Source: a virus
IMG/VR virus record: IMGVR_UViG_3300043446_003158
Coordinates: 1 to 64,000 of that record
Length of the DNA: 64,000 bases
Direction: 5' to 3' (one strand)
A program made the position numbers and the translations under genes. A model generated the notes under the pieces. The model made no database searches. It was not told the origin of the DNA and saw only the letters and a program-made list of their open reading frames with translations. Of this stretch, positions 9,838 to 54,950 are shown piece after piece. The stretch's first letter is position 1; each line of letters starts with the position of its first letter.

Positions 9838-10638
9838 TTACGCTCCATCTTCATGCCAACATTCATTATATCCATTTTTTTGATCATCATATGGGTAAGA
9901 ATTTAGTTCTTTCTTTGGCCAAACTAAATCAATACCAGTTCTTGGAAAAGATTTAAATATTTTTTTACTTAAACTTTGACTAAGTTCATATGCCTCTTGC
10001 CATTTGGGAGCATAATCATAAAGATATTCGTTAGGATAAAGTAAAAATAATTTAATCCTGTCATCATAGTTAGAACAATAGTGTGCTCCAATATAAGTTT
10101 CTGTTCTCGTATAATGACCATAATACTTCCACAAATCATACTTGCTTATTCTCACTTTGTCAATAAGTCCATTTAATTCTAATGGAATATCAAACATTTT
10201 TAATAAGTGTTCTGTTTTTCCCCAGAAAACATGATCTCTGGGATGAAATAAAAGATGTGGATACATTCCAGGAACAAAAATTCTATCTTCATTCCTATTT
10301 TCAATAAAGAACTGATACATATTCAACATACTTTGATAAGTATATTTCTGATCGGTTCTCATTTTAATTGCATATTCAGTTGTAACTTTCTGCAATCCAG
10401 AAAAAGAAGTTACGATCTGAAGATTTCTATTATCTGTTCCAGGAGTAATTGGAAATTTATTTGAAACAACAAAAAATCTTGAAGTGGGATGATAATTGAC
10501 AATATCATCATCCCAACAAGAAAGAATAATGTTGTTTACGAAAGGTAGTTCAAAGTATGAATCTATAACCTCATTAGTAAATTCATCATATCTTCCTTGC
10601 AGAACAATATCAATTTTTTCAAAGTTATTATTCTGCAT
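9838..10638 (-). CDS. WavE-like glycosyltransferase
   Basis: The 266-residue protein has the WavE pattern: DIVLQGRYDEFTNEVIDSY, IILSCWDDD, then NRNLQIVTSFSGLQKVTTEYAIKMRTDQKY, then FHPRDHVFWGKTEHL. WavE-family proteins take part in lipopolysaccharide core synthesis. It lies next to a giant glycosyltransferase, sharing one base of overlap at the start. It probably adds a sugar to a host or virion glycan; the target is unknown. Confidence 0.75.
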   Translation of the reverse strand: MQNNNFEKIDIVLQGRYDEFTNEVIDSYFELPFVNNIILSCWDDDIVNYHPTSRFFVVSNKFPITPGTDNRNLQIVTSFSGLQKVTTEYAIKMRTDQKYTYQSMLNMYQFFIENRNEDRIFVPGMYPHLLFHPRDHVFWGKTEHLLKMFDIPLELNGLIDKVRISKYDLWKYYGHYTRTETYIGAHYCSNYDDRIKLFLLYPNEYLYDYAPKWQEAYELSQSLSKKIFKSFPRTGIDLVWPKKELNSYPYDDQKNGYNECWHEDGA

Positions 10639-13600
10639 CAGATCTTTTTTTCAAGATGAATGTCATAGTGCTTTAAATTTTCAACAATAATATCATAATA
10701 ATCTTCACCAACATTATCATCTTCAGATAAAGATACAAAAATATTTTTGGATTCTTCTACTTTACCCCAATACCATCCAGACAAAGCCTTTTCAAATAAA
10801 AGACCATACTTACCTGGATACTCAACATCAGAAGTTGTTGATGGGTCAAACAATTCACAAATACTTAGTCCTAATGAAGCATACTTGTAGCAGTCATTCC
10901 ATTGATGTCTTCTTTCATGAAATCTAGCAAGTAAGAAATATGCCTCAGGTCTATTTGGAAGAGTGCAGAGAGCTTGTTGAAGTAAAGATATTGCAGTTCC
11001 ATCTCTAGTTCCTTGCTTATCATAACAATGGTGGCATTTGATTAAAGATTCATAGATCATATTCTCATCTTCGTATCTTTCAGATGCTCTCAAAAAATAA
11101 GATAATGCAGGAGCCGTGTGTCCCTCTTTTTCATACCAAAGACCCAAATCATAATTTCTTTGGGGATTTTCTGGATCTAACGAATATTCAGTTAGTAACA
11201 CTTCAAGATCAGTTTTATTCCTAGAAATAGAAATTTCATCATTAGATTCAACTAAATCTAAAATTTTTGATTGATAATTTTTTTTCCACCACCCAATAAC
11301 ATGTTCATATGTTTCTACATGATAATCTTTATTTTCTTTTTCAAGTTCAGAATGACCATAAAAAGTAGATTTAAGATTTTGGTCTTCAACAAAAAGATTT
11401 ACAGAATAAACTTTCCCCAAGTTATAAAATAAAAGATTTTCAGGCATTGGATAAAAATCTGTTCCTGGAATTTCTAATTTATAACAATCTCCTTCGATAT
11501 AAGTTTCAATTATTTTTCTTGCATAATCTCTAGTTAAAATATATGCAGTAACAGACCAATCCATCATTGATCTATTTCTTATTTTTACTTCTTGTTGATT
11601 TTCATTTATACAACAAAGTTGAACACACTCAGCATCTTCTGGTAAATTTTCTATAAAATCATTCCAAGTAAAGTTCCAATATTCAACTGTTTCAAGGCTC
11701 AAATCATCTTCGCAGAAAAATGCATAATCATCTTCAGTTTCTTCATACCATTTTTTAATTGCCTTTAAATGAGATATGCAACACCCAGTTGTTCCAGAGT
11801 CAAGAATATGAAGTTGTTTACCATAAACTACATCGTCACATTCATGAAATCTTTTAGAAATAATCCCATGAAGGTTTGTAACTCCAAGATCTAAAAATTG
11901 TTTGTGTAATTTTTCCCTTCTATCTACACTTTCCTCTAGACTAATGTAATAAACACTAGGAAAATCTACAAATTTAATTTTATTTGGAATAATTTTATCA
12001 GAAGTTAATTTAAAGCCCATTTCTTTCCACCAATTAAGAATTGTATTGTGAGAATTATAATGATGATCATTCAAATCATTAGTAACATTTTCTATTTCAT
12101 AAGAAGATTTAAATGAAACATCTTCAACAAAAAGAGGATAAACATATACTCTATTAGTTAAACCTAAAATAATAGTTTCTACTACTGGAATAACTGCCCA
12201 ATCTGGACGAGTATCTACATCATAACACTTACAGTCTAAATGAAAATAATCATCGTAATAGTATGTATCTATCAATTTTTGTGCATATTCTCTAGTAATT
12301 AAATATGCACAACAAGACCAATCACATGGCCATCTTTTTCTAAACTCAAAAGGATTTAAGTAGTCGGTATAATATTCTCTTAGTAAACAAAGTTGAATAC
12401 AATCCCACTTAGGAGGAAGAATATCCATAAATTCTTCCCAGGTAAAATTCCAGTATTCAACTGTTTGAAGACTTAAATCATCTTCACAGAAGAATGCATA
12501 TTCATCATTTGTACTGTTTAACCATTGTTTAATTGCTTTAAGGTGTGAAGTAACTGGTCCTCTACTACCTTGGCTTAATTTCCATTGACCAACTGCATTT
12601 AAATAATCACTAAGAATTACGTGCTCATCATCATTATATCTTTTGAATATGTGTGAGGTTATATTAGTTACTCCATACTTTTTAAATTTTTCATATAATT
12701 TTTTTCTTCTAAAAGTAGAATTTTCTATGCTAACGTAATGAACTGGTGGAAAATTTTTTAATTTGTTAAAATCATTATCAGTCTCTTCTTTTATACTGGC
12801 AATATAAAACCTATCTTTTTGTTCATCAATTACCCATTCTGTATTTGATTTATTATAATAATCAACTATGTTTTCCAATTTTTGAGAGTTAATTCTATTA
12901 TGTTCCATTGTAAGAACATAATCAGTTTGCCACTCCAATTCATCTCCAAAATATACATTGCTTAAATTAATACGAATAGTCTCTCTAAGATCTTTATCAG
13001 TTTCGGAAGATTTAAAATTTTCAACTCGTTTTGTATCTGGATGAGGTATATGGAACACATGATAATCAAAATCCATTTTCTTGTGCTCCAACCCCACCAT
13101 TTCTAATCTTTTATAGATTTCATCATCTTCAAAAGAATAATATTCACAAAAATCTTCATTATATCCACCAACTTTTAAAAAATTTTCTTTTGATACAAAT
13201 AAAAGACCAGTTAAAAATCTATAATAAGAACTATAAGAATTATAGTAATCAGTTAATTGATCTAAAGACATCTTATTGCGGTCTACAATATAATTACCAG
13301 TTCTTTCATCATAAAATTCATTATTTACAATAGAACTTTTTCCGCTTACAAATGATTGACTATCTATTTTGTACTTATCAAAAAAAGAATAATAACAATT
13401 AAATACATAATCACAATCAACTTTTAGAATATAATCTCCTTTTGCCACAGAAACCGCAAGATTAAGCGGTTGTGGTTGATTAAAATATTTTTGATTCTGA
13501 ACTCTAATAATTTTAATTCTTTCATCTAAAGAAATTAAATGCTCTAAACTTTCATCGGAACTCCAATCAACGATTATTATTTCAGTAATTTCTTTATGAT

Positions 13601-13673
13601 TTAACCAAGAATTTAAAGAAACATTTAAAGCTGAATTGCGATTTTTGCAAGCACAAATTAAAGAAATAGACAT
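10638..13673 (-). CDS. Giant multi-domain glycosyltransferase: GT2, two GT25-like domains, TPR
   Basis: The 1011-residue protein reads as four modules. Residues about 1-250 are a GT2 domain (IIIVDWSSD, KVDCDYVF as DxD). Residues about 310-550 and 573-800 are two tandem GT25-like domains, each with a FRRKKL- or DRREKL-type start, a SHLKAIKxW segment and AFFCEDDLSLxTVEYWNFTW. Residues about 824-1000 are TPR-like helices (ENPQRNYDLGLWYEKEGHTAPALSYFLRA). GT25 covers LPS galactosyltransferases and collagen galactosyltransferases. Three active sites in one chain suggest stepwise building of an oligosaccharide, with TPRs binding protein. The two GT25 domains are duplicates that have diverged. Confidence 0.8.
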   Translation of the reverse strand: MSISLICACKNRNSALNVSLNSWLNHKEITEIIIVDWSSDESLEHLISLDERIKIIRVQNQKYFNQPQPLNLAVSVAKGDYILKVDCDYVFNCYYSFFDKYKIDSQSFVSGKSSIVNNEFYDERTGNYIVDRNKMSLDQLTDYYNSYSSYYRFLTGLLFVSKENFLKVGGYNEDFCEYYSFEDDEIYKRLEMVGLEHKKMDFDYHVFHIPHPDTKRVENFKSSETDKDLRETIRINLSNVYFGDELEWQTDYVLTMEHNRINSQKLENIVDYYNKSNTEWVIDEQKDRFYIASIKEETDNDFNKLKNFPPVHYVSIENSTFRRKKLYEKFKKYGVTNITSHIFKRYNDDEHVILSDYLNAVGQWKLSQGSRGPVTSHLKAIKQWLNSTNDEYAFFCEDDLSLQTVEYWNFTWEEFMDILPPKWDCIQLCLLREYYTDYLNPFEFRKRWPCDWSCCAYLITREYAQKLIDTYYYDDYFHLDCKCYDVDTRPDWAVIPVVETIILGLTNRVYVYPLFVEDVSFKSSYEIENVTNDLNDHHYNSHNTILNWWKEMGFKLTSDKIIPNKIKFVDFPSVYYISLEESVDRREKLHKQFLDLGVTNLHGIISKRFHECDDVVYGKQLHILDSGTTGCCISHLKAIKKWYEETEDDYAFFCEDDLSLETVEYWNFTWNDFIENLPEDAECVQLCCINENQQEVKIRNRSMMDWSVTAYILTRDYARKIIETYIEGDCYKLEIPGTDFYPMPENLLFYNLGKVYSVNLFVEDQNLKSTFYGHSELEKENKDYHVETYEHVIGWWKKNYQSKILDLVESNDEISISRNKTDLEVLLTEYSLDPENPQRNYDLGLWYEKEGHTAPALSYFLRASERYEDENMIYESLIKCHHCYDKQGTRDGTAISLLQQALCTLPNRPEAYFLLARFHERRHQWNDCYKYASLGLSICELFDPSTTSDVEYPGKYGLLFEKALSGWYWGKVEESKNIFVSLSEDDNVGEDYYDIIVENLKHYDIHLEKKI

Positions 13674-13678
13674 ATAAA

Positions 13679-14149
13679 TCAGTTACTTGATATAAACTTT
13701 TTATAAAAAATTGCTTTGTCGGTGCATACACCGAATCCTTTTTTTAAATTTTCTAGATGATCATAATAATTTATTGATTCTGGAAGAACAATGATTCCTT
13801 TTGAGTATGGAAATTGCCCTATCAAAATCCAACCAAATCCTTTACTGGTGATAGTATACCTATCAGTTTCATGCCAAAAATAGTTAAATTCTACCATAGA
13901 TGTAGATAATTTTTCCAGTGCTTCTCTATTTTTACAGTGAATCCATAAAACATCTTTGTGTTTTACCAACCAATTAATAGGAACATGATATTGTGGTTTA
14001 TCATGTCCAAGATAACACTCATTATTTTCAACTCTTAAATCAATCTCAACATCAAATCCTTCAGCAATTGCTTCTTCAATATAATCAACACTATTTTCCT
14101 TGATTGGATTTGGACCAGTCAAATTTCCACGATGAGAAATAATTTTCAT
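13679..14149 (-). CDS. Short GDPD-like phosphodiesterase
   Basis: ATG 14149 lies 1 bp past the RuBisCO-like stop. The 156-residue product starts MKIISHRGN and has GFDVEIDLRV (E-x-D) and YLGHDKPQY. These are the HR, ExD and GHD landmarks of glycerophosphodiester phosphodiesterases, but the protein is about two thirds of the usual length. A longer frame running back to 14380 overlaps the RuBisCO-like gene and is not the real start. In this cassette it could cleave a phosphodiester-linked glycan or lipid head group; that is inference. Confidence 0.7.
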   Translation of the reverse strand: MKIISHRGNLTGPNPIKENSVDYIEEAIAEGFDVEIDLRVENNECYLGHDKPQYHVPINWLVKHKDVLWIHCKNREALEKLSTSMVEFNYFWHETDRYTITSKGFGWILIGQFPYSKGIIVLPESINYYDHLENLKKGFGVCTDKAIFYKKFISSN

Positions 14150-14150
14150 A

Positions 14151-15389
14151 TCAAAAATCCAACACCCACTCAGGAAGAGAACCTCCACCAGTTTCATATC
14201 CCCACTTATCAATAGCAGCACGAAACTCTGGTCCAGGAGTTTTATCAATTGCCTGACGCATTGCCAGAGCACCTGCCAGAGTACCCCCAGGATGCCCGTG
14301 AACAGCGCCGCCACAGTTAGCAAGGAAGTCTGTTCCAAACTTCTCTGCAGTGGTGTTAACGATCCCTGGATGCATACCACAACTCAATGCTGGAAGAACA
14401 TTTCTATTGTAAAGTGTCGTTAAAGTCTTACGAAGTTCTGTCTCATCATCACTGAGATATCCACCCCACATTCCAGCATGAATGGTATCCACTCCACAAA
14501 GACCAGCAAGATCACAGAGAACATCCCAATCAATACCAAATGCATGTCTCTTATCAGTAAGGATTTTATCTCCACTCTTTTGGTAATGAATAAACATTGG
14601 AAGGTCCATTCTTCTAATTGAATTATAAACACCAAGACCAGACCAGAAATTAATGTGGATACCATTACCACCATTATTTGCAACAAAATTTGCACGTTCA
14701 AGAATGGTGTGATGATCTCCATTAATACAGAAGCAGTAAATTACTCCTCTTCCACATTCATTTACAATGTTTGAAATAAGTTCTACACGATCTTCAAGAC
14801 GGCAGAATGCAGGATTGGAAAGAATTTCATCTTCCTTAATAAAATCAACACCACCATCAAGAAGTTCTTTAACCATATCGGCAAGAGTTTGTGGTGTAAT
14901 GCCTGTTTTAGGTTTTACGATTGCACCAGAAAGTGGTTTATCAAACCTGTTAACGAACCTACGAATACCTTCAATTCCATATTTTGGTCCAAGAAATTGT
15001 GCTTCTACATCAGCAGGAAACTCCAGTTTCTGAAGGCGACAAACTTTAAATACATCAATATCAAGTTGTCCACCCATTACCTGACAGAGAAGATGTGAGA
15101 TACCATCACCTTCCCAATCAGTATTGACTTTGGGGAATCCAATCTTCACTTGCCCAGAGTGAACCCCAGTAAGGTTTTCTTCCGTATCATAGATGACACA
15201 AGATGCTAACTCAAAAAGTTCATCACTCTCCCAGCGATTACGAACCTTTGGATTTCCCACACTCTGCCCAATGGCAAGATTCCAAGCAGCATCTCTCAAA
15301 TCACCAACTTGATGATTTGCTTCAATATAATACGTTGCTACTACACAACGATCTCTTTCTTGTTCTGTTAGTTCTCTAAAAAATTTCAT
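14151..15389 (-). CDS. RuBisCO-like protein (large-subunit fold, form IV type)
   Basis: The 412-residue protein aligns by eye with RuBisCO large subunits over its whole length. Kept are KPK at 159-161 (spinach K175 region), the carbamate/metal triad K185-x-D187-E188 (K201, D203, E204), H268, H304 (H327), S336 (S379) and G360-G361 (G403-G404). Lost are the loop-6 Lys334, here Tyr311, and Arg295, here Tyr269; the E60/T65/W66 region reads AIGQSVGNP. It should therefore not fix CO2 and belongs with RuBisCO-like proteins, which enolise or decarboxylate sugar-phosphate-like substrates. It overlaps the upstream methyltransferase (ATGA) and sits in a sugar-nucleotide cassette. The substrate is unknown. 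Confidence 0.88.
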   Translation of the reverse strand: MKFFRELTEQERDRCVVATYYIEANHQVGDLRDAAWNLAIGQSVGNPKVRNRWESDELFELASCVIYDTEENLTGVHSGQVKIGFPKVNTDWEGDGISHLLCQVMGGQLDIDVFKVCRLQKLEFPADVEAQFLGPKYGIEGIRRFVNRFDKPLSGAIVKPKTGITPQTLADMVKELLDGGVDFIKEDEILSNPAFCRLEDRVELISNIVNECGRGVIYCFCINGDHHTILERANFVANNGGNGIHINFWSGLGVYNSIRRMDLPMFIHYQKSGDKILTDKRHAFGIDWDVLCDLAGLCGVDTIHAGMWGGYLSDDETELRKTLTTLYNRNVLPALSCGMHPGIVNTTAEKFGTDFLANCGGAVHGHPGGTLAGALAMRQAIDKTPGPEFRAAIDKWGYETGGGSLPEWVLDF

Positions 15390-16060
15390 GCTTCAACCTC
15401 ATTTCTTACTAAGACTAATATCTCATCACCATCAAATCCATATTGTTGATTAGAATTACAAGTTTTTACTTGAGTTATATTACTATAATACTTATCATGC
15501 CCATAAAGTTTAATTTCATCAGCATAACTGTAAATTCTATAAACAATATCTTCAATTATAAGACATCCTCCAGGATTTAAATACTTATAAGCATTTCTAA
15601 TTACTTTAATTTGATCCCAAAACTTATGGCTAGAATCATCTATAATAACATCAAATTTAGTATTAGATTTTTCAAAAGAATTATTAATTGACTCTTCGGA
15701 TTTGACATTCATATAATCATAAAACACATTATGTAAATTTTCAGTTTTGGCATTTTGTATAAAATCCTCTTGATATCTATCTTCAGAAGATTCTCCTACT
15801 TTACAATCCCACCCATAAAGAGTTGCATTTGAAAAGTATTCTCTCCACATTCTCATAGATGCGTTTTTATATATTCCAATCTCACCAAAAACAATATTCT
15901 TATGTCTAATATTAGAAAATAAAAAATTATAAAACGGAGTGTATGCGTGATGCCCCATAGAACGCGCCAGAGGAGATTTATCAGTTCCATACTTTTCACC
16001 AATAAAACACAAATCTGTAGGAGATGAAAAACTATTATACAATATTTGATTAAACTTCAC
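15386..16060 (-). CDS. Class I SAM methyltransferase, GTG start
   Basis: The 224-residue product has FGEIGIYKNASMRMW as SAM motif I, DVIIDDSSHKFWDQIKVI as the acidic motif and GGCLIIEDI after it. The EKYGTDKS opening resembles sugar and antibiotic methyltransferases of the CmcI or TylF type. No nearby ATG fits; GTG 16060 has GAGG about 7 nt upstream. Its stop overlaps the RuBisCO-like ATG, so both are made together and probably act on the same molecule. Confidence 0.78.
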   Translation of the reverse strand: MKFNQILYNSFSSPTDLCFIGEKYGTDKSPLARSMGHHAYTPFYNFLFSNIRHKNIVFGEIGIYKNASMRMWREYFSNATLYGWDCKVGESSEDRYQEDFIQNAKTENLHNVFYDYMNVKSEESINNSFEKSNTKFDVIIDDSSHKFWDQIKVIRNAYKYLNPGGCLIIEDIVYRIYSYADEIKLYGHDKYYSNITQVKTCNSNQQYGFDGDEILVLVRNEVEA

Positions 16061-16062
16061 TT

Positions 16063-16383
16063 TTAAACCTCAAACTTATCTGATGGAATAGAAGGAACTT
16101 TAACGACAACTAATGTACAATCTTCAAGAAAAACTGGATCTGCAACTTCTCCTTTTTCAAAAATAAATACATCTCCACTATTTAATTCTTTTCCTTGAAT
16201 GGTCATTTTTCCAGAAACAAGAACATTATATTCTACACTTTCTTTATGGTAGTGCGGTGCCCAATACTCTCCCTTTTTATGCGTAAGTAACCCAACTTCA
16301 AATTGGTCTGTTTTCAATACTGAAGGTTTAAAGTTTCCTATAAACCAACCTCTCACATAATCAGTAATTTTTGATGTGTTCAT
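16063..16383 (-). CDS. Cupin-domain protein
   Basis: The 106-residue protein has one cupin barrel. Motif 1 is WAPHYHKESVEYNVLVSG (two His and a Glu as metal ligands) and motif 2 is GDVFIFEKGEVADPVF. Small cupins beside nucleotidyltransferases often act as sugar epimerases, isomerases or sensors. It overlaps the nucleotidyltransferase gene by 23 bp, so they are translationally coupled. Confidence 0.8.
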   Translation of the reverse strand: MNTSKITDYVRGWFIGNFKPSVLKTDQFEVGLLTHKKGEYWAPHYHKESVEYNVLVSGKMTIQGKELNSGDVFIFEKGEVADPVFLEDCTLVVVKVPSIPSDKFEV

Positions 16384-17092
16384 ACTTTTCTAAAAAAGAA
16401 TTCAAATCTTCTGGAACTCCAACTGGATTATGTTGATAATTTGGAATATGATGTATTCCAACTTTAAGTCCTTTCTTAATCATATGATTATAAGATGGGC
16501 CAACATAAAACTCACCATTAGGTGCTCTATCATTACATTGTATCATATCTTCTGCACTTTGTACAAAATATTTCCCCTTTCTCCAATAATGAATTCCATT
16601 TAAGGATATATCACTTATAACTTCTTTTTCTTTTATTTCCTGAACAAATCCTTTACGATCAATTCTAGCGTAACTATTTTTTGGTGTAGATGTGGTATAA
16701 GTCACAATCAACCCATCATACTTATAATATCTTGCAGATGTTAAAAATAAATCAGAATCCCACCACATAATCTGATCACAGTTAGCAATTATTAATTCAT
16801 CCTCATTATTAATAAAATCTTTAAACAAAAGACAACTGGAAGCAGGTCCTTCTGTAGTTTCTTCTACGCTAATAATTTTTGAAGTTGGAAGTATGGAATG
16901 TAATAATGTACATACTTGATCATAATAACTATCTTTTCTTATGATAAAATGATAGGTTCCCGTTAATCCAAGAGAATGAACTGCTCTTTGAATCATTGCA
17001 ATTCCATCAATTTCAATTAATGGTTTTGGAATTTTATAGGTATCTCTAGGAAATCTAGTCCCTTCACCTGCCATTGGAATTATTATATTCAT
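16361..17092 (-). CDS. Sugar-phosphate nucleotidyltransferase-like protein
   Basis: The 243-residue protein opens MNIIIPMAGEGTRF and has IPKPLIEIDG, the GxGTRF and PKPL motifs of the NTP_transferase family that make NDP-sugars from NTP and sugar-1-phosphate. IIANCDQIMWWDSD supplies the metal-binding Asp pair. It heads the cassette nucleotidyltransferase, cupin, methyltransferase, RuBisCO-like, GDPD-like. It probably activates the sugar used by nearby glycosyltransferases. Confidence 0.85.
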   Translation of the reverse strand: MNIIIPMAGEGTRFPRDTYKIPKPLIEIDGIAMIQRAVHSLGLTGTYHFIIRKDSYYDQVCTLLHSILPTSKIISVEETTEGPASSCLLFKDFINNEDELIIANCDQIMWWDSDLFLTSARYYKYDGLIVTYTTSTPKNSYARIDRKGFVQEIKEKEVISDISLNGIHYWRKGKYFVQSAEDMIQCNDRAPNGEFYVGPSYNHMIKKGLKVGIHHIPNYQHNPVGVPEDLNSFLEKYEHIKNY

Positions 17093-30453: not shown

Positions 30454-33400
30454 TTACCACCAGGTAATTCTAACATATCCATCTCCACCATTTCCACCAG
30501 TTCCAGACAAATTATTTTCTACAGAATAACCTCCTCCGCCTCCGCCGCCGCCGCGAGTTCCATCTCCACCATTTCCAGCTGCAGAAACTGGTTCACCACC
30601 ATTAAAAGATGACATAGTTGCTTGAGGTCCACCAACAAGATATAATGAATTACCATATACTATTGCGGAAATTGCAGTTGATCCAAAACCACCATAAGTA
30701 GAAGTTCTTAAACGCCATGTAATTGCATCTGTAGAATAAACAATTGTTGAACCTCCTATGGCAGCATAATATAATCCATCATGGGCAAATCCATTGATTG
30801 CGGTAGATCCAAATCCAGAAGTTCTTAATTGCCAAGAAATACTATCAGTTGAATAAATCAATATAGGTTGATTTGAATTATCGGTTCCACCAATTAAATA
30901 CCGAGTTCCAGAAGAATTTATTGAATAAACAGAATTAAAAGTTTGAAGATTATTTTTAACTGTTCTAGATTGCCAAGAAATAGTATCAGTTGAAACTACC
31001 ATTCTACCATTTCCTTCTGTTAATCCAATATAACTGGCAGAAGACATTGTCGCATTTATTCCACCAATTACAAAAATATCATTTAAATATGTCATAGTAT
31101 TAATTGTACTAGAACCAAATCCAGAAGTTCTAAATCTCCAAATAATTGCATCTGTTGAAATGGAAACTGTTCCATTAGCACCACCTATAACATATAAATT
31201 ATTATTATAAGAAATAGAATTTATATCAGAAGTTCCAAATCCAGTTGTTCTTAATGTCCATGCAATCGCATCTGTAGAAGTTGTCAATGTTCCTTTTATA
31301 CCAATTGCAACATAAGTTGTTGTTGGAGAAGATGAATACACAAGAGATTGTATATTAGATGTTCCGAATCCAGAAGTTTGAAGGGTCCATCTAATAGTAT
31401 CAGTAGAAGTCATTAATGTTCCACTATCTCCAGATGCAACATAAGTATCTGTGGGAAGTGAACCATAAGTAAACGCATTAATTGCAGTTGTTCCAAATCC
31501 AGAAGTTCTTAGAACCCATATAATATTATTTGTAGATGCAATAATTTGTCTCTGAGAAGCACCGTCTAGCGCAGATGCTAAAACATATGATCCCACTTGT
31601 TTAATTGTAGATAGTGAGAATATTTCAATAGGAGAAGTTCTTAAAGACCAAGAAATAGTATCAGTTGAAGCTGCTAGTAATGCCCCAGAAGATCCGTAAG
31701 TTAATGTTTTTATTACGGCACTGTTTAACAAACCATTTAATCCACCACCAATCAATGCAAGGGTTCCACCATAAGTCATTGCAGAAATTGAAGAACTTCC
31801 AAATCCAGTAGTTGTTCTTATGACCCAAGAAATTGCATCAGTAGAAATTCTATTTGTGCCACTTTGTCCACCAATTACATAGATATTAGTATCATTAATA
31901 TACATCAATGAATTTATTGATGATGTTCCAAATCCAGTTGTTCTTATTGTCCAAGCAATTCCATCAGTAGAAGTTGCTAATCTACCAGAAGTTCCAGAAG
32001 CAACATAAGTTGTAGTAGGAGATGATCCATATGCTAAATTATTAATTGAATTAGTTAAAAATCCAGAAGTTTGAAGAGTCCAAGAAATAGTATCTGTAGA
32101 AGTCATTAAAGTTCCACTAGCACCAGCAGCAACATAAGTATCTGTGGGAAGTGAACCATAAGTAAACGCATTAATTGCAGTTGTTCCAAATCCAGAAGTT
32201 CTTAGAACCCATATAATATTATCAGTAGAAACCGTAATAATTGTTTGAGAAAGCGAATTAGTACCAGTTGCAATAGAATAAGATCCCTCTTTTTCCATTA
32301 CGGAAATTGCTTGAACACTTGCCGAAGTGGTTCGTGTAACCCATGCTATAGAATCAGTAGATGCTCTTAGCAATCCTCCTGTTCCTAAATTTCTAATGCT
32401 TAAATGATTAGATGTCATTATCGTGGCATTAGTACTAATAACTCCAGCCATTAACCACACATCAGCACCAGAACCATAAGTAAGACAAAGATTTGCAGTA
32501 GCTGATCCAGTTGTTCTCATTATCCACACAATTCCATCTGTTGAAGTTAAACTTCTTCCAGTATTGGCAGCAATTACATACGCACCATCATAATATCTAA
32601 CAGAATTAATAGTAGTTGTACCCAATCCAGAAGGTGTTGTTCTAAATGCCCAAGCAATAGCATCAGTAGAAGTCATTATAGTTGCATTATTTCCAGCAGC
32701 AACATAAGTAGATGTTGGTTGATTACCATATGCCAATCCATTAATATTTGTTGCACCAAATCCAGAAGTTTGAAGAGTCCAAGAAATAGTATCTGTAGAA
32801 GTCATTAAAGTTCCACTAGCACCAGCAGCAACATAAGTATCTGTGGGAAGTGAACCATAAGTAAAGGCATTAATTGCAGTTAATCCAAATCCAGAAGTTC
32901 TTAGAACCCATATAATATTATTTGTAGAGACAATTAAACCTCCAGATTGTCCAAGATAATTTGTCGTATGTGCTAAAACATAAGAACCAGAATATTCAAG
33001 ATCCGTAGTATTTTGATTACTTAATGGAGTAGTTCTTATTTGCCAAGAAATACTATCTGTTGAAGCACTAATTAAAGATCCAGCACCTAAACCATATAAA
33101 ATAGGTCCAGTTGAAGATGCCAATGTTCCATTTACTCCACCAATTATATAAGTAGAATTAAATCCAGAACCACCAGAAGCAATACAATTAATTGAACTAG
33201 TTCCAAATCCAGATGTTCTCAATATCCATACAAATGAATCTGTTGAGGTTAAAATTCTTCCGCTAGAACCACCAACAACAAAAGCATCTAAGTCAAAATT
33301 AATATAAGAGGCAACGTTTGCGGTAGAAGTTCCAAACCCAGCACCAGAAGTTCTAATTGTCCAGGCAATAGCATCAGTTGAAGCCCCTATTGCTCCACCA

Positions 33401-36400
33401 GCAGAACCAACAACATAATATGGTTGAGATGATGGTCCTACAGTTCCATATGCTAAACTTGCTAAATTACTAGTTCCAAATCCAGAAGTTTGAAGAGTCC
33501 AAGAAATAGTATCTGTAGAAGTCATTAAAGTTCCACTAGCACCAGCAGCAACATAAGTATCTGTGGGAAGTGAACCATAAGTAAACGCATTAATTGCAGT
33601 TGTTCCAAATCCAGAAGTTCTTAGAACCCATATAATATTATCAGTAGAAACCGTAATAATTGTTTGAGAAAGCGAATTAGTACCAGTTGCAATAGAATAA
33701 GATCCCTCTTTTTCCATTACGGAAATTGCTTGAACACTTGCCGAAGTGGTTCGTGTAACCCATGCTATAGAATCAGTAGATGCTCTTAGCAATCCTCCTG
33801 TTCCTAAATTTCTAATGCTTAAATGATTAGATGTCATTATAAGATTGCCACTATTTCCACTTGCAATCCAAACATCAGCACCAGAACCATAAGCAATATC
33901 AGTAATTGCAGAAGTTCCAAAACCAGAGTTTGTTCTTAGTATCCATACAATCGTATCAGTTGAAGTTAAAGTTCTTCCGTTGCTAGCAGCAATTACATAT
34001 GTTCCAGAATAAGAATTAACAGCATTAATAGTAGTTGTTCCCAATCCCGTTGTTCTTAGTGTCCAAGCAATACCATCAGTAGAAGATGTTAAAGTTCCAC
34101 TAGGACCACCAGCAACATAAGTTGCAGAAGGAGATGAACTATATGTAAGTGATGAAATAGATGTAGTTCCAAATCCAGAAGTTTGAAGAGTCCAAGAAAT
34201 AGTATCTGTAGAAGTCATTAAAGTTCCACTAGCACCAGCAGCAACATAAGTATCTGTGGGAAGTGAACCATAAGTAAAGGCATTAATTGCACTAATTCCA
34301 AATCCAGAACTTCTGAATTGCCATATTATATTGTTAGTAGAAGCAATTAAACCTCCAGACCCACCAGTAATATCAGAAGATCCTGCTAAAACATAAGAAC
34401 CAACAGATTCTATTGCAGATATTCCTATTATTCCTGTCGGAGAAGTTCTTAAAACCCAAATAATACTATCTGTAGATGCTCCTATCACACCACCATATCC
34501 ATAAGATAAATTAATTGAGGAATTCATTATTCCTGATCCACCAACCATGAGATAATTATTATTTCCATATGTAACTGAATTAATTTGCGATGTTCCAAAT
34601 CCAGTTGTTGTCCTTATAATCCAGGTAATTCCATCGGTAGAAGTTTGATTTCTTCCTTGAGCACCTGCTATAAGATAAAAAGGACTTCTGTATAAAATAC
34701 TTGTGATGGTAGATGTTCCAAATCCAGAAGTTCTTATTGACCAAGAAATTGAATCTGTAGAAGATCTTAAAGTTCCATTTACACCAATCGCAACATATTT
34801 TTCTACTTTATCAGATCCATAAGAAATACCATTAATTGTAGATGTTCCAAATCCTGCTGTTCGCAAAGTCCAAGAAATAGTATCAGTTGAAGTTGCTAGA
34901 GAACCAATCGCACCTGCTGCAACATAATTAGTTCCATCATATAAAATAGAATTAACTCCAGTTCCTAAACCAGTATTTAATAAAGACCACGATATATTAT
35001 TGGTAGACATTATTAAATCTGCTCCAGTTCCACCATAATAATTACTTAAATTACCAAAAACATATGATCCAGCAGCATTTAAATAAGTTACAGACAAACT
35101 ATCATAAGTAGTTGTTCTTGTAGTCCATGAAGAAAGATCTGCAGAAGCTCGTAAAATACCTCCAGTACCCAAAGAAATACTTGAACTTGTTGCATATTGA
35201 ACAGATCCACCCGTTGAACCTATTAAAAATTCACTACCTGTAGAATTAGAAATAATTGCATTGTAAGAAGCTGTTGTGGTGGCATTTGTTCTCAAAACCC
35301 ACATAATTCCATTAGTTGAAGATGCCACATAATTAGTAGTTCCATTACTGACACACAAATAATCTCCATTACTATAATAAAGTTTAGATACATTAGTAGA
35401 TAAACCACCAGCAGCATTTCCAGCTTCCCAGGTAATTGAATCGGTTGAAGTTGCTATTTCCCCAGTATTAAGACCAATTACATAAGTTGATGATGGTAAA
35501 CTACCAAAAGTTAATGACGTAATTGTTGCGGTTTGATATCCCGTTGTTCTCAAAGTCCAAGAAATAGTATCACTTGAAACTATGAAAGATCCTCTAGTTC
35601 CTGCAGCAATATAAGGATTTGTTTGACCACTAGCATACCAAAGAGATCTAATTTGATCGCCATCAAGTCCAGTTGTTCTCAATATCCAAATAATATTATC
35701 AGTAGAAACGCAAATATTTGTACCATTTCCACTATAATCTGGAGATTGAAATACTACATAAGAACCACCAAATTCTATTGCTCCAGCATTTTGTGTATTA
35801 TAAGGAGCAGTTCTAGTAACCCATGCTATAGAATCAGTAGATGCTCTTAAAAAAGCTCCAGTTCCATTTGATTTTACTAATGATGCCGTAGCATATTCCA
35901 TTGCCCCATTATCACCACCAACAACATAACTATCAAGTAAACTATGATATGTTATAGCATTAATATTAGTAAACACCGAAGTTCTTAATTGCCAAGTAAT
36001 TGTATCAGTTGAAACAAGTAGTGCTGTTGTTAAATTTGCAAGATAAACATTATTAGAATAATTAATATCCCTAACATCAGATCCAGCAAATCCTAATGTT
36101 CTTATAAACCATGTTATTGCATCAGTAGAAGAAGCAATAGTGGAATTTGCTCCCGCAATAAGGTATCTTTGTGATTGATCACTTGCATATTGAGCAATAT
36201 AAATTGCACTAGTTCCAAATCCAGAAGTTCTCAAAGTCCAAAAAATAGAATCTGAAGATATCGCAATTCCACCGAGATCAGATGTTACCAAATAATTGCT
36301 ACCATCATAAAGAGATCCGTATACTAATTGATTTCCTAAAAGACCAGTAGTTCTTAAAGTCCATATAACGTTATCAGTAGATAATGCAAGAGCAGTATTA

Positions 36401-39400
36401 GATCCACGATAATCACGCAATCCACAAAAAACATAAGAACCATTTTGTTTTAAAGACCAGTTATTAATACCAACCGTAGAAAGTGGAGTTGTTCTAGTAG
36501 TCCAAGCAATACTATCAGTAGAAGCGCGAAGTAAAGCACCAGATCCTAAAAGATCTAAACTTGATCTGGTAGCAGATTGAATAGTTCCACCTTGACCACC
36601 AATAATCCAAACATCAGTCAATTCACTTGTAGTAAGTATGAGAGAACTTCCAAATCCAGTTGTTCTTAAAACCCAATTTATAGTGTCAGTTGATGTTATT
36701 GTATTTCCAAATGGAGAAGATGCACTGGAAAGAACATATAAACCATTATCATAGTATCCACTAGAATATGTACCCGATGCTATTGCTGTCGCCTGTGTCC
36801 TTATAAACCAATTAATTGAATCGGTAGAAACTCTTATACCATTCGTAATATCGTATGTTAAGAATCTTTCACCATAAAGTAACATAGTTGAAGTTGCATT
36901 ACCAGATGCTGAAGTTCTTGCTATCCAAGATAAAGAGTCATCTGAACTAAAAACTTGACCATTTGCAGATAAAGTTAAAGAATATGTATTATTTCCATAC
37001 GCAACAGAAAGAATACTAGACGACCCAAATGATCCTATACCTTGCGTTCTTAATTCCCAAGTAATGTTGTCTGTTGAAGATATTAATGCAGATTGACTAA
37101 TTTGATTAGTTACTCTACTAAACACATAAGATGGTGTTGAAGAAAATTGATCTATGGATTCAATATTATATGGAGAAGTTCTAGTAACCCATGCTATAGT
37201 ATCAGTTGATGCTCTTAAAACTCCGCCAGTTCCAAGAGAAGATAATAGTAATGGTGTTGATATTGCTATTGCAGCATTTGATCCAGTAAATAGTCCACCT
37301 ATTAAAAATATACCATTTCCTGGCGATGCTATGTTTTGCCCCGCAATACCTGTAGTTCTCAATATCCATGTAATTGCATCAGTTGAAGATGCTGATGCCG
37401 CATTAAGAAGTGCAACACCATTTGAATATACAACAGGAGTATAAGATCCAATTATATTAGCAGTTGTTCGTATAACCCAACGAATTGAATCTGTAGATGT
37501 TAAAGTAACTTGATTTCCTGAAACAATATATTTTTGTTCAAATTCTGGAGCATATGTGGCAGAATATAAAAGATATCCAGTAGATGGCGATGTTCTGTAT
37601 ACCCAACTAATAGTATCAGTTGAAGCCATTATTATTCCACTATTACCAACAGCTAAGTAAGTGGTTGATCCGTCATAAGTAAATCCTCTTACAGCAGTAT
37701 TTCCAAAACCAGAAGTTCTTAATGTCCATATAACATTATCACTAGAAGCACAAATTATTCCATTATTAAATCCAAAATAATCCTGGCATCCAACTAAACT
37801 ATAAGACCCCACAGATTGTGTAGCTAAAAAAGTTGGGTTTGCAGACCCAAAAGGAGTTGTTCTAGCAACCCAAGAAATTCCATCTGTTGAAGCTTGTAAT
37901 GTAAATCCTGTTCCTAATTGAGATAATATATCTTGTCGTGAAGCAATAACAGTTGCTCCATTTCCACCTTGCATCCAAATATTATTTCCATATGCAGTTG
38001 TATTAATTGTAGATGATCCAAAACCAGAAGTTCTAATTACCCAAACAATGCTATCAGTCGAAGTTAATGAAACAGAAGATCCAGAAATAACAAAAACACC
38101 ACTATTATATTCAAGTGAAGTAACAGTATTAGTTGATAATCCCGATACAGTTCTAAGAACCCAAGCAATTGCGTCTGTAGATGATCTTACTAATCCATTC
38201 ACTCCCCCAATTACATATTTGTTTGAAGATTGATCTCCAGCATAAACAACTTGAGTAATTCCAGTCGCTCCAAATCCAGAAGTTCTAAACGTCCATGCAA
38301 TTCCATCAGTAGATGATCTTAAAGTTGCAGCAGGTCCAACTGCAAGGAAATTAACCGCAGGAAGAGCACCATATGCAAGATTATTAATTGCACTGGTTCC
38401 AAATCCAGAAGTTCTAAAGGTCCAGTTAATTGTATCTGTAGAGAATGATAAATCTCCAGTAATTGATGCTGCATAGTAATTACTATTCAAGAACGCAACA
38501 GCAGTAATTGCACTTGTTCCAAATCCAATAGTTCTAATAAACCAACTAATATTATCAGTAGAAGACGCTAAAATTCCACCAGCTCCCAAATAATTAGTAA
38601 ATCCACCAAGTGTATACCCAGAACCACTTGCAATTGGTCGATAAGCAGAAGCAGAAACACCTTGTATATTTGAACATGTTGTTCTTAAAACCCAATAAAT
38701 GGAATCGGATGAAGTTGCAATTAATGCTCCTGCACCCACACCATTTAATCTACTTGTAGTTGAAGATTGAACAAAACCATTTTGAGATCCAGATACGTGC
38801 AATTCATTGGCATAAGCAAGAGTTAAAAATCCATTAGCAGTAGTGCTTGTTCTAAATATCCAACTAATTGTATCTGTTGAAGTTTTAACTGTTCCATTTG
38901 GTCCACCAATTACATAACTATTAGAAATAGAATCAAAAGAAATAGTGCTAACACTTGTAGTTCCAAATCCAGTTGTTCTTAATGTCCAGGCAATCGCATC
39001 TGTTGAAACACTTAAAGCGCCAGAAGTTCCACCAGTAACATATCCATAAGTTGAATTGCTATAAATTAAGCTTAAAAATCCTGATGGTGCTGTACCAGCA
39101 GTTCTAAATGTCCATGCAATTCCATCTGTAGAAGACCTAGTTGTTCCGTTATTACCAACGGCAACAAATTTTTCTGATGTTGCATTACTAAATGTAACAG
39201 CTCCAATTGAAGTTGATCCAAATCCAGAAGTTCTAAATGTCCATGCAATAGTATCTGTTGAAGTTTTAATTGATGCCCCACCACATATAATATAAGTATG
39301 GGTACTATTAACAAATCCATATGCTAAAGAATAAACTTGACTAGTTCCAAATCCAGCAGTTCTTAAAGACCAACGAATACCATCACTAGAAGATGAAATT

Positions 39401-42400
39401 TGCCCAGTAGATCCACCATAAACATATGGAAATGGTGAACCAGAAGCATATAATAAAGCAGTTATAGAAGTTGATGCTGTTGATGATGTCCTTAAAACCC
39501 AATTAATAGTATTTGTAGAAACTGAAATCGTTCCAGATGCACCACCTAAAATAAAATTACTGCCGTCGTAAGTTGAGCAGTTAACATTTTCTGTAGCTCC
39601 AAATACTGCAGTTCTTAAGTTCCATGATGTATTATTGGATAATCCAACAGCAACAAATTCATTTGTAGAAGAATAATAAGAACTGCCGAATATACCAGTA
39701 GATCCAAATCCACTTGTAGTTCTAAAAGTCCACATTGTAGAACCATAAGATGTAATCAAATATTCGGATGATAAAGAAGACCAAGCAGATCCTTGAGGAG
39801 TAAAAGATCCAAATGCAACTGCGGTTGTTCTAATAATCCATATGATTGAATCTGACGAAGAAGCAACTTGATATGGGGAAATATTTCCAGTAGCAGCAAC
39901 ATATTTGTCACTTGCAGACGGTGCAGTTGAACCATAACTTAATGTATAAACTTGAGCATTTGCTACATTAAATGGAGTTGTTCTTAAACTCCAAACTCTA
40001 CTTACTGTTGATCCTCCGATTAAAAATTCTCCACCATTTAATGAAGACCATACTAAAGTACTAATTGCACTAGTTCCAAATCCAGAAGTTCTTTGAATCC
40101 AAACTACACCATCAGTTGATCCTGCAACAGAACCTTGAGATCCAAAAGCAGCTAAGTTACTTATCGTAGATGATGTTCTAAAATTGTAAACTATAGAAGA
40201 AATCGCACTAGTTCCAAATCCAGAAGTTCTAAATGTCCAAGTTGTTGTTGGTGTAAATCCTCCAATTAAATATTCACCTTGATTAGATTCTCCACCAAAA
40301 GAAGACCAAGTAGCAGAATCAATTCTTGTTGTTCCAAAACCACAAGTTCTTAAAACCCAACGAATACCATCAGTTGATCCACCAACAAATCCATTAGTTC
40401 CAGCAGATATAAAATTACTAATAGTTGAAGATGTTTTATTATTATTTGCTAAGTCCCATATGTGAGTTGTTCCAAATCCTGCGGTTCTTAAAGTCCAAAG
40501 AGTTGAAATTGTAGTAGCAGCAGCAGCTAAAAATTCTCCATTATTAAAAGAAGAATATGTTATAGTTGCAATAGAACTTGTCCCAAAACCAGAAGTTCTT
40601 AAAGACCATGCAATTGTATCTGTAGAAGATCTTAATGATCCCCCACTATAAGCATTAACAAAAAGATTAGGTGGAGAAAGAGTAGCTTTATTAGTATATG
40701 CAATTTGATTAACTTGTTGTGTTGTAACCGCAGTTCTTAAGATCCAAGTTGTTACGTTTCCAGAAAATCCACCAATTAAATATTCACCATTAAAATATGT
40801 TAGAGATGATATGGTGGTAGAACCAAATCCAGTTGCAGCAGGAGAAACCCATGCTATTGAGTCTGTAGATCCATATATAGAAGCACCAGTAACATAAGCA
40901 AAATTAGGAATTGTTGAAGAAGATTGATTATTAAATGTTACTAAATTAATCGCTGTTGCAACTCCAGATGTTCTTGCAGTCCAAGTTGTTGATGCTGTTG
41001 CATTACCACACAACAAATATTCATTGCTGAGTGTAGAATAAGTTAATCCTCCACTAGATCCAGATCCACCAACAGTGGTTCTTGCAAACCAAACAATTGC
41101 GTCAGTTGAAGATCCTAACCCATTTATTGTTGGACTAAGATAGACAAAATTACCATCAGTACTTGAATTTAAATTATTAGAAGTTACATAATTAATTACT
41201 GTGCTGCCTAAAGTTTGAACAGAAGTTCTTAAAGTCCAAACAGTAAGTGGTTGTAAAGTGCCACCTATTAAAAATTCATTAGAATTATAAGTAGCACCAG
41301 AAATAGAAGTAGAACCAAACCCAGAAGTTCTTAATTGCCAAATAACAGTATCAGTAGATGAAGCTAAAGTAGCACCAGCACCTCCAGCAATATAAGTTGT
41401 AATTCCACTTGATGGACTACCATTAGATGCTACTGCAATAATACTATTTGTAGAGAATATGGTTGTAGTTCTTACATACCATGTTACATCTGTAGCATAA
41501 CCACCTATTAAATATTCACCAACTTCTCCATTAAATGTTGAATATGTTAAACTAGTTACTGATGTTGATCCAAAACCAGAAGTTCTTAAAATCCAATTTA
41601 CCCCATCAGTAGATCCACCAACAGTTCCAGAAAGTCCAGAAAATACAAAATTACTATTAGTACTTGAATTTAAATTGTTAGACGCAACATTTAAAATATT
41701 GTTTGCATAATTAGCAGCAGTTCTTAAAGTCCAAACGGTAAGTGGTTGTAAAGTTCCACCTATTAAATATTCACCATAATTGTAAGTAAGACCAGTAATA
41801 GCAGTTGATCCAAACCCAGAAGTTCTTAATTCCCAAATAGTTCCATCAGTTGATGAAGTTAGAGTGGCACCTGCTCCACCCGCAACATAAGTTGTAATTC
41901 CACTTAATGGACTGCCATTGGATGTTAAAAAAGAAATAGAAGTAGAACCAAATCCAGAAGTTCTTAAAGACCATATAAAATAAGTTGCAGTACCACCTAT
42001 TAAAAATTCTTTATTATTGTATGGCGAATACGCTAATCCAGAAACATTTGTTGATCCAAATCCAGAAGTTCTAAAAGACCAAGCAATAGTATCAGTAGAA
42101 GACCTTAGTGGACCGCCTCCAGTACCAGGACCTGCAGCAACATAATAACTTGTATTACTTTCAAATAAATTTCCAGATGATAATAAAGTAATACTAGAAG
42201 ATCCAAATCCAGAAGTTCTTAAAATCCAATCAAAAGTATTACCATACCCAATCATGTAGTAAGGATTTAAATATCCAATGGCAGAAACTCCATATGTTTC
42301 AAGTCCAGAAGTTCTTAATTCCCACTGAATACCATCAGAAGAATTAGAAACGACTCCAGAAGAACTTACAGCAAGATATTTGTATGTTGATCCAAAAATA

Positions 42401-54600: not shown

Positions 54601-54950
54601 GTTCCTTGAGTTCCTTGAGTTCCTTGCCCACCACTAAATCCTTGAACACCTTGCTCACCTTGGAGTCCTTGTGTTCCTTGAACGCCTTGACCTGCAAATT
54701 CACCAGATAATCCTTGAATACCTTGTTCACCTTGAAGACCTTGGATTCCTTGGTCACCTTTACCAACAAATCCTCCAGATAAACCTTGAGTTCCCTGTTC
54801 ACCAATAGATCCATCAGATCCTTTTTGTCCCTGCAATCCTTGAGTGCCTTGAGCACCAGAACTACTGGCAACTATTTTTACAGCATTTTCTTGGCCGACC
54901 CTAACGGTTGGTTGATTTCCAGAATTTACACGAACCCGTATGTCTGCCAT
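45657..54950 (-). CDS. Giant collagen-like tail fibre with C-terminal peptidase S74 chaperone
   Basis: The 3097-residue product is mostly Gly-X-Gln triplets ([13 protein letters not shown]), with hardly any proline. Five non-collagen islands break it, near residues 357-430, 703-805, 1117-1188, 1578-1718 and 2238-2510. Islands 1 and 3 are near copies ([17 protein letters not shown]...). The last about 100 residues, from [28 protein letters not shown] through [18 protein letters not shown], form the endosialidase chaperone (peptidase S74), which folds trimers and then cuts itself off. It is surely a trimeric long fibre. The 9-bp DNA repeats make false long frames on both strands. Confidence 0.9.
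46681..46856 (-). repeat. 63-bp tandem repeat, about 2.8 copies
   Basis: A 63-bp unit (21 codons, seven Gly-X-Gln triplets) begins at 46681, 46744 and 46807, the last copy partial, with no differences seen by eye. Such exact repeats inside the collagen-like gene allow slippage and length change. Confidence 0.7.
54209..54290 (-). repeat. 27-bp tandem repeat, three copies
   Basis: A 27-bp unit containing GATTACCCTGAAGTCC on the plus strand is repeated three times in a row, encoding nine residues each. It lies near the N-terminal side of the collagen-like protein. Confidence 0.7.

What the first reader, a model, noticed from the sequence alone, without database searches (positions are those of the whole stretch)
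14151..15389. RuBisCO-like protein in a cyanophage glycan cassette
A full-length RuBisCO large-subunit fold keeps K185/D187/E188, H268, H304, S336 and the double Gly, but has Tyr311 for the loop-6 Lys and Tyr269 for Arg295. It should not be a CO2-fixing enzyme. RuBisCO-like proteins use enolisation or decarboxylation chemistry on sugar-phosphate-like substrates. Finding one in a phage, next to a nucleotidyltransferase and sugar-type methyltransferase, suggests it makes an unusual sugar. I do not know of it as a standard cyanophage auxiliary gene.
Basis: partly seen in the sequence, partly recalled or inferred. Interest (0 to 1): 0.88.

Follow-up and report, generated by a model that had tools for sequence, protein, structure and literature searches.

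The report
Phage RuBisCO-like enzyme for sugar activation
A virus of photosynthetic bacteria carries a relative of the plant CO2-fixing enzyme RuBisCO that has lost carbon-fixing parts of its active site, and its constant neighbour, a sugar-activating enzyme, suggests that it helps make an unusual sugar building block instead.

Summary
The gene is real: a 412-aa ORF on the minus strand at 14151-15389 with a complete RuBisCO fold (AlphaFold pLDDT 93.6; Z 43 to form III). It belongs to a clade (SH-aLRT 100) apart from forms I, II, III, II/III, OiaX and other RLPs sampled; 222 IMG/VR stretches encode relatives, but no match was found in 50,697 phage records. Metal and carbamate residues, Lys175 and Lys177 are kept in 49 of 49 rows; Glu60, Thr65, Asn123 and His294 are lost in 49, Lys334 in 48. 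The conserved neighbour is a nucleotidyltransferase (78 of 81 loci), usually with a cupin and a GDPD-like protein; the methyltransferase is not conserved (10 of 81). In relatives without RLP the same nucleotidyltransferase family is fused to ribose-5-phosphate isomerase B, DHBP synthase or a HAD hydrolase. Best reading: a sugar-phosphate enolase/isomerase, most likely on a ketose phosphate such as ribulose 5-phosphate, feeding its nucleotidyltransferase for glycan decoration. Substrate and chemistry are inferred, not shown. New variant of a known kind.

The parts
14151..15389 (-). RuBisCO-like protein, 412 aa
16361..17092 (-). Nucleotidyltransferase (NTP_transferase), the constant partner of the RLP
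   Evidence: Pfam PF00483 1.2e-07; found in 78 of 81 loci; same family fused to RpiB, DHBP synthase or HAD elsewhere
16063..16383 (-). Small cupin, 106 aa; usual member of the cassette
   Evidence: Pfam Cupin_2 and Cupin_7 below their cut-offs; H44 and E51 invariant, H46 nearly so in 16 rows; 68 of 81 loci; also in RLP-less RpiB cassettes
13679..14149 (-). GDPD-like protein, 156 aa, starts one base after the RLP stop
   Evidence: HRG, E/D and GHD residues invariant in 14 rows; no Pfam family at 1e-3; weak PDB profile hit to a GDPD, E 0.00068; start and junction; 64 of 81 loci
15386..16060 (-). Methyltransferase; local neighbour, not a core member
   Evidence: Pfam Methyltransf_31 and _24; a hit in only 10 of 81 loci; overlaps the RLP start by 4 bases
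10638..13673 (-). Multi-domain glycosyltransferase downstream (context)
   Evidence: Pfam Glycos_transf_2, Glyco_transf_7C, Glyco_transf_25; a hit in 26 of 81 loci

Best explanation
The RLP is a metal-dependent sugar-phosphate enolase/isomerase that supplies a dedicated nucleotidyltransferase. SHOWN: RuBisCO fold by prediction; retained carbamylatable Lys, metal Asp/Glu and the two active-site Lys residues; loss of carboxylation residues; tight genetic linkage to the nucleotidyltransferase. INFERRED: a ketose monophosphate binds with its phosphate on the side of RuBisCO's P2 site (Lys271, His/Gln304, Ser336 kept or conservatively changed) rather than the P1 site (Thr65, Trp66, Lys334 lost). 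A Mg-bound 2,3-enediolate forms and is reprotonated or rearranged instead of being carboxylated. The most likely substrate is ribulose 5-phosphate, because the partner nucleotidyltransferase is fused elsewhere to two enzymes that use it. The product is activated as a nucleotide sugar and placed on a glycan by the neighbouring glycosyltransferases; cupin and GDPD-like proteins process it further. The confidence below is for 'sugar-phosphate enolase/isomerase feeding the nucleotidyltransferase'; for ribulose 5-phosphate as the actual substrate I would say about 0.3.
For: (1) Linkage: nucleotidyltransferase hit in 78 of 81 loci; in 90 of 99 loci with a called RLP an NTPT-like gene lies within 3 genes and 1.5 kb; linkage holds at 36-45% RLP identity in SAR11, Nanoarchaeia, Verrucomicrobia, Elusimicrobia, Azospirillum and Legionella contigs (short contigs L088 and L104 show none). 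(2) Active site, 49 clade rows: K175, K177, K201, D203, E204 kept in 49; E60->G, T65->N, N123->G, H294->Q in 49; K334->Y in 48 (one row cut); R295->K in 46. (3) Fusions of the partner family: NTPT-RpiB (PF02502 3.9e-32), NTPT-DHBP synthase (PF00926 5.4e-65), HAD-NTPT; 115 NTPT-RpiB ORFs (83 distinct) and 23 HAD-NTPT (20 distinct) in 156 fetched loci, RLP in 0 of 156; RpiB and DHBP synthase in 0 of 103 RLP loci. (4) Legionella: RLP in 4 of 22 genomes, each beside LicD (divergently transcribed) and NTPT; in two RLP-less genomes read, LicD is followed directly by a HAD-NTPT fusion. (5) The window also carries G6PDH, 6PGDH (its product is ribulose 5-phosphate, established knowledge) and transaldolase genes.
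Against: HAD domains occur in 7 of 103 RLP loci, in five of them apparently fused to the nucleotidyltransferase next to RLP, so HAD is not simply a substitute for RLP. The NTPT resembles sugar-1-phosphate enzymes (RmlA, mannose-1-phosphate guanylyltransferase), which sits awkwardly with a 5-phosphate product. RpiB cassettes also carry a HAD phosphatase and a weakly PfkB-like protein, the logic of a sugar-1-phosphate route that the RLP cassette lacks. The DHBP synthase fusion is known here from one isolate (two records). The NTPT tree has long branches and some mis-chosen rows; partner changes number 4 against a least possible 3, so exchange of partners is only weakly counted and its direction is unknown. 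P1/P2 assignment is from sequence, not from a ligand-bound structure.
Confidence: 0.6

Rival explanations
1. Decarboxylase of a keto sugar-acid phosphate, working like OiaX (3-oxo-isoapionate 4-phosphate decarboxylase).
For: The OiaX model scores 158.6 bits; OiaX also has Gly at N123; decarboxylation is a known RLP chemistry.
Against: Far below the OiaX cut-off of 700; the OiaX row keeps K334, R295, T65 and H294, which this clade lost; OiaX and kin sit with four-carbon acid sugar kinases, aldo/keto reductases or transporters, none of which I noticed among the Pfam-scanned cassette genes (not searched for specifically); separate clade.
Confidence: 0.12
2. An RLP-cupin methylthio-sugar salvage step as in Rhodospirillum rubrum (recalled): RLP isomerises a methylthio-ribulose phosphate and a cupin removes methanethiol.
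For: RLP and cupin genes lie together in 68 of 81 loci.
Against: The cupin follows the NTPT rather than the RLP: it is the next gene in 100 of the 113 NTPT-RpiB cases with a gene called there, none with RLP, and no cupin hit was found in GDPD-NTPT-RLP loci such as L046 and L084. MtnW models score 167.1 and 121.1 bits against cut-offs 409 and 513.6. Methionine-salvage genes were not searched for.
Confidence: 0.06
3. A true but unusual carboxylase that fixes CO2 on a sugar phosphate (not RuBP) to make a branched sugar acid that is then activated.
For: Among the non-carboxylase groups examined only this clade keeps both K175 and K177, plus the carbamate Lys and metal ligands.
Against: K334, E60, N123 and H294, used for CO2 addition and its control in RuBisCO (established knowledge), are lost in 48 or 49 of 49 rows.
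Confidence: 0.1
4. The RLP acts after the nucleotidyltransferase, on an NDP-sugar, as an epimerase or isomerase.
For: Gene order NTPT-cupin-RLP is the commonest; loss of bulky P1 residues could make room.
Against: RuBisCO-fold enzymes known act on small phosphates (recalled); RpiB and DHBP synthase, found in the same cassette in place of RLP, act on free sugar phosphates (established knowledge).
Confidence: 0.12

Closest known systems
Form III RuBisCO (Pyrococcus/Thermococcus, 2cwx, 3a12, 8dht)
   Same: Fold (Z 40-43, 28-29% identity); K175, K177, K201, D203, E204, S379 and the double Gly kept
   Different: E60, T65, W66, N123, H294, R295, H298 and K334 changed; separate clade
OiaX and other RLPs beside a four-carbon acid sugar kinase or reductases
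   Same: RuBisCO superfamily, sugar-phosphate chemistry
   Different: They keep K334 and R295 and lost K177; catabolic-looking operons
MtnW (DK-MTP-1-P enolase; 2oem, 2zvi; 4nas so labelled)
   Same: Fold (Z 40-42); enolase-type chemistry is what I propose here; K334 lost in 4nas too
   Different: 4nas keeps T65 and W66 (1-phosphate side) and lost R295 and K177; this clade shows the opposite pattern; below MtnW cut-offs
NTPT-RpiB, HAD-NTPT and NTPT-DHBP synthase cassettes of isolated cyanophages (Bellamy, S-8S53, S-SKS1)
   Same: Same nucleotidyltransferase family; cupin in Bellamy; cupin and GDPD-like neighbours in the uncultured relatives
   Different: No RLP; another sugar-phosphate enzyme in its place (HAD, however, coexists with RLP in 7 of 103 RLP loci)
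Viral 'rbcL' reports: Great Salt Lake (PMC8506154) and landfill viruses (PMC12607003)
   Same: RuBisCO-family genes in viral contigs
   Different: Presented as carbon-fixation genes in the passages I saw; the landfill one clusters with 'RbcL-like' proteins; sequences not compared here

Membership tests
RuBisCO superfamily | RuBisCO_large domain and fold | tested here: met
   PF00016 148.7 bits, cut-off 30.1; Z 43.3
RuBisCO forms I/II/III (carboxylase) | Placement inside forms I-III | tested here: not met
   49-row clade apart from all 23 others, SH-aLRT 100 (quick search, no bootstrap)
RuBisCO forms I/II/III (carboxylase) | Loop-6 Lys334, Glu60, Asn123, His294 | tested here: not met
   Tyr, Gly, Gly, Gln in 48-49 of 49 rows
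RuBisCO forms I/II/III (carboxylase) | RuBP carboxylase activity | not testable with these tools
   needs enzyme assay
Form IV RuBisCO-like protein (broad sense) | RuBisCO homologue lacking carboxylase residues | tested here: met
   by residue pattern only, activity not tested
OiaX | NCBIfam equivalog cut-off and operon | tested here: not met
   158.6 of 700 bits; different neighbours
MtnW | NCBIfam equivalog cut-off | tested here: not met
   167.1 of 409 and 121.1 of 513.6 bits
Form IV-GOS clade | Placement with GOS sequences | not tested
   GOS sequences not held; the GOS paper (section 24 read) mentions 65 GOS sequences in unplaced groups
R. rubrum-type RLP-cupin shunt | Cupin specific to the RLP | tested here: not met
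   cupin next to NTPT-RpiB in 100 of 113 RLP-less cases

The most novel reading that the evidence does not exclude
A new reaction of the RuBisCO fold: a biosynthetic (not catabolic, not carbon-fixing) isomerase or rearranging enolase dedicated to nucleotide-sugar or phospho-sugar formation, spread through uncultured phages, SAR11, DPANN archaea and Patescibacteria, and taking the place held in sister cassettes by ribose-5-phosphate isomerase B or DHBP synthase.
Probability: 0.5. Interest if true: 0.88.

Novelty: new variant of a known kind. Interest (0 to 1): 0.74.

Why it matters
The characterised uses of the RuBisCO fold that I know of (recalled) are carbon fixation, nucleotide or methylthio-sugar salvage, and sugar catabolism. 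A large clade tied to a nucleotidyltransferase would add biosynthesis of activated sugars, would show that phages carry RuBisCO relatives for glycan chemistry rather than for CO2, and would warn against counting viral 'rbcL' hits as carbon-fixation genes. The clade's invariant residue pattern and small partner set make the substrate question directly testable.

Tried and rejected
CO2 fixation: rejected on residue losses and tree. Methyltransferase as a pathway member: rejected, hit in 10 of 81 loci. RLP as a strict substitute for the HAD domain: weakened, HAD found in 7 of 103 RLP loci. CDP as the nucleotide: considered because of LicD next door in Legionella, but NTPT profile hits are spread over UTP, dTTP, GTP and CTP enzymes, so the nucleotide is left open. 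The first NTPT tree was replaced because for RLP loci it took the best-scoring NTPT, not the nearest; five long or doubtful rows and L086 and L103 were dropped before the second tree. In the second tree four SAR11 rows are the divergent NTPT-like gene between GDPD and RLP, not the NTPT after RLP, and L070 is labelled RLP although also fused to HAD, so its partner counts are rough. Viral structure library: no RuBisCO-like match (best TM 0.39/0.41, to a Tupanvirus protein); this only says that library has none. Alphaproteobacteria sample: clade-profile hits at 1e-30 in 2 of 289 genomes, one of them the starting genome, the other an RLP whose best PDB match is 3nwr (I call this type IV-NonPhoto from memory). 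psbA as a cyanophage marker in RLP contigs: 6 of 50 records (50 of the 80 viral loci given; the records are fragments), so many RLP carriers may not be cyanophages. Literature: searches listed no paper describing this clade or an RLP-nucleotidyltransferase pair; passages of PMC9875498 and PMC13269706 concern cellular RuBisCO. Preprints and most subscription journals are not in that library.

Full report
WHAT IS THERE. The finding gives no strand. The ORF is on the minus strand, 14151-15389, 412 aa, ATG start; the plus-strand reading has stops. It matches Pfam RuBisCO_large at 2.8e-43, with the N-terminal domain just under its cut-off (20.6 of 20.7 bits). The best NCBIfam models (form III 203.6 bits, MtnW 167.1, OiaX 158.6) are far below their cut-offs of 497, 409 and 700. 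All 22 members of a clade alignment match the same six models, with best E-values close to those of the window protein. An AlphaFold2 model from 44 aligned sequences has mean pLDDT 93.6 and aligns nearly full length with form III RuBisCO (2cwx, Z 43.3, 2.1 A, 378 residues), MtnW (2zvi, 2oem, Z 42.4) and other RLPs.

THE VIRUS. The window belongs to a 177,187-base virus record. It carries psbA, glucose-6-phosphate dehydrogenase, 6-phosphogluconate dehydrogenase and transaldolase genes and matches Synechococcus phage DNA in that part at about 75-83% in the best rows, so it is cyanophage-like. No tRNA was found in the window.

HOW WIDESPREAD. tblastn finds no match in 50,697 phage records, yet 222 stretches in IMG/VR contigs encode relatives, of which the best 80 were fetched (55-100% identity). 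A scan of a collection with one genome for each of 84,980 prokaryote species, by two exact peptide patterns, gave 32 loci. Of these, 23 (L082-L104) belong to the clade by score: at least 298 bits against the clade profile, while the 9 others score 201 or less. Their record titles name SAR11, Nanoarchaeia/Pacearchaeota/Woesearchaeota, Patescibacteria, Verrucomicrobiia, Elusimicrobia, Azospirillum, Legionella and Bacteroidota; none is titled as cyanobacterial. Some 'cellular' hits are probably phage contigs in MAGs: L082 does not differ from viral L043 in the tree's columns.

TREE. 72 rows, IQ-TREE quick search, LG+C20 PMSF. The 27 viral and 22 cellular clade rows (L092, a near-copy of L091, left out) are one side of a branch with SH-aLRT 100, apart from 23 others: forms I, II, III, II/III, OiaX, RLPs with sugar-acid kinases, 3nwr-like RLPs, 4nas and several archaeal and Patescibacteria RuBisCOs.

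ACTIVE SITE. Positions were mapped through the form III sequence by motif; spinach numbers are recalled. In 49 clade rows: K175, K177, K201, D203, E204 kept in all; E60->Gly, T65->Asn, N123->Gly, H294->Gln in all; R295->Lys in 46; H298->Asp in 45; K334->Tyr and S379 kept in 48 with one truncated row; H327 His in 42, Gln in 6. The other RLP rows examined lost K177 (1 of 1 OiaX, 1 of 1 4nas, 5 of 5 RLP+kinase, 2 of 2 3nwr-like) and 8 of these 9 keep K334 and R295. So this clade has its own pattern. Reading: enolisation machinery kept, carboxylation machinery lost; the C1-phosphate side (T65, W66, K334) lost, the C5-phosphate side (R295->K, H327, S379) kept or conservatively changed. 4nas shows the opposite for T65, W66 and R295. 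This is inference from sequence.

NEIGHBOURS. By tblastn of window proteins on 81 loci (80 viral and the window's own): nucleotidyltransferase 78, cupin 68, GDPD-like 64, methyltransferase 10. By ORF clustering of 99 loci with a called RLP (4 of 103 had none called, being cut by contig ends): nucleotidyltransferase family within 6 genes in 91, cupin 69, GDPD-like 66. In 90 of 99 the nearest NTPT-like gene is 1-3 genes away and under 1.5 kb. Gene junctions in the window are tight: 4-base overlap of methyltransferase and RLP, 1 base between RLP stop and GDPD-like start. Nine loci add a fructosamine-kinase-like gene, an AroB-like sugar-phosphate cyclase and an SDR gene after RLP.

WHAT THE PARTNER DOES ELSEWHERE. 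Isolated cyanophages without RLP carry homologues of the nucleotidyltransferase fused to other domains: Bellamy gp206 + LacAB_rpiB, followed by a homologue of the same cupin; S-SKS1 + DHBP synthase; S-8S53 HAD + nucleotidyltransferase. Two IMG/VR scans centred on the Bellamy proteins, each keeping its best 80, fetched 156 loci (some contigs in both sets): RLP in 0 of 156, 115 NTPT-RpiB ORFs (83 distinct sequences), 23 HAD-NTPT (20 distinct). Around NTPT-RpiB, where a gene is called: HAD phosphatase at -2 in 107 of 110, gp205 family (weak PfkB match) at -1 in 108 of 114, cupin at +1 in 100 of 113, GDPD-like at +2 in 74 of 111. The reverse test: RpiB and DHBP synthase in 0 of 103 RLP loci. So the frame is nucleotidyltransferase-cupin-GDPD with an exchangeable sugar-phosphate enzyme. 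Against a simple swap: HAD is found in 7 of 103 RLP loci; in five of them the nucleotidyltransferase near RLP is long, L070 and L073 read as HAD-NTPT and L073 was confirmed by Pfam. The nucleotidyltransferase tree (92 rows, 16 with no called partner) needs 4 partner changes, the least possible being 3, and is rough for the reasons given under Tried and rejected.

LEGIONELLA. RLP is in 4 of 22 genomes of the genus as held, each beside a divergently transcribed LicD gene (PF04991 3e-43 in L100; the others by homology) and a nucleotidyltransferase. LicD is in 11 of 22. Of the 7 RLP-less LicD genomes I read four: in G024 and G035 LicD is followed directly on the same strand by a HAD-NTPT fusion (Pfam for G024's); in G026 and G032 no nucleotidyltransferase stands beside it. 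In G029 and G039 a frame of 469 and 485 aa with the nucleotidyltransferase lies within about 0.7 kb, not read; G038 is cut. LicD enzymes move a phosphate-bearing unit from a nucleotide donor (established knowledge), which fits a route RLP -> sugar phosphate -> nucleotide sugar -> transfer.

MECHANISM. Committed reading: ketose phosphate in, enediolate on the carbamate-bound metal, isomerised product out, then nucleotidyl transfer. Ribulose 5-phosphate is favoured because RpiB and DHBP synthase both use it (DHBP synthase also by an enediol, recalled) and because the phage's own 6-phosphogluconate dehydrogenase makes it. None of this chemistry was measured.

PRIOR ART. Viral rbcL/cbbL was reported in Great Salt Lake viruses as carbon fixation (PMC8506154, abstract and passages) and an 'RbcL-like' viral gene in landfills (PMC12607003, passages and parts 2-3 of its reference list). 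The GOS paper (PMC1821046, passages and section 24) noted 65 RuBisCO-family sequences outside known groups. I saw no description of this clade with its nucleotidyltransferase in the listings.

Noticed in passing
L043:8001-9191 and L082:1432-2622: A 'Crocinitomicaceae' MAG contig carries an RLP that does not differ from one in a viral contig in the tree: probably a phage contig binned into a MAG.
   Followed up: partly
L027, L029, L030, L031, L032, L033, L034, L036, L069 downstream of RLP: RLP cassettes followed by a fructosamine-kinase-like gene, an AroB-like sugar-phosphate cyclase and an SDR: looks like a cyclitol route in phages.
   Followed up: partly
L160:4001-5428 (Synechococcus phage S-SKS1): Nucleotidyltransferase fused to DHBP synthase, annotated only as the riboflavin enzyme.
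   Followed up: partly
L281:1663-2773: Split transketolase genes (Pfam Transketolase_N and Transket_pyr) directly upstream of HAD phosphatase, gp205-like and nucleotidyltransferase genes.
   Followed up: no
L137 (genome G020, the genome of L111): RuBisCO homologue with IQDPEN where carboxylases have KDDE: lacks the activating Lys.
   Followed up: no
records of L004, L006, L007 (G332, G334, G335): psbA appears in pieces about 0.9-1.3 kb apart, as if interrupted by an intron or insertion.
   Followed up: no
window 14151-15389 against 10638-17092: RLP GC is 40.5% while its cassette neighbours are 28-32%.
   Followed up: no
window 30454-43596 and 45657-54950: Two giant minus-strand ORFs of 4380 and 3097 aa next to glycine-rich-domain proteins, perhaps tail or adhesin proteins.
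   Followed up: no
window 56482-57633: Tryptophan-halogenase-like protein (PF04820, 7.8e-33) in the phage.
   Followed up: no
L056 record: An RLP cassette lies on a 518,643-base viral contig, a huge phage by size.
   Followed up: no
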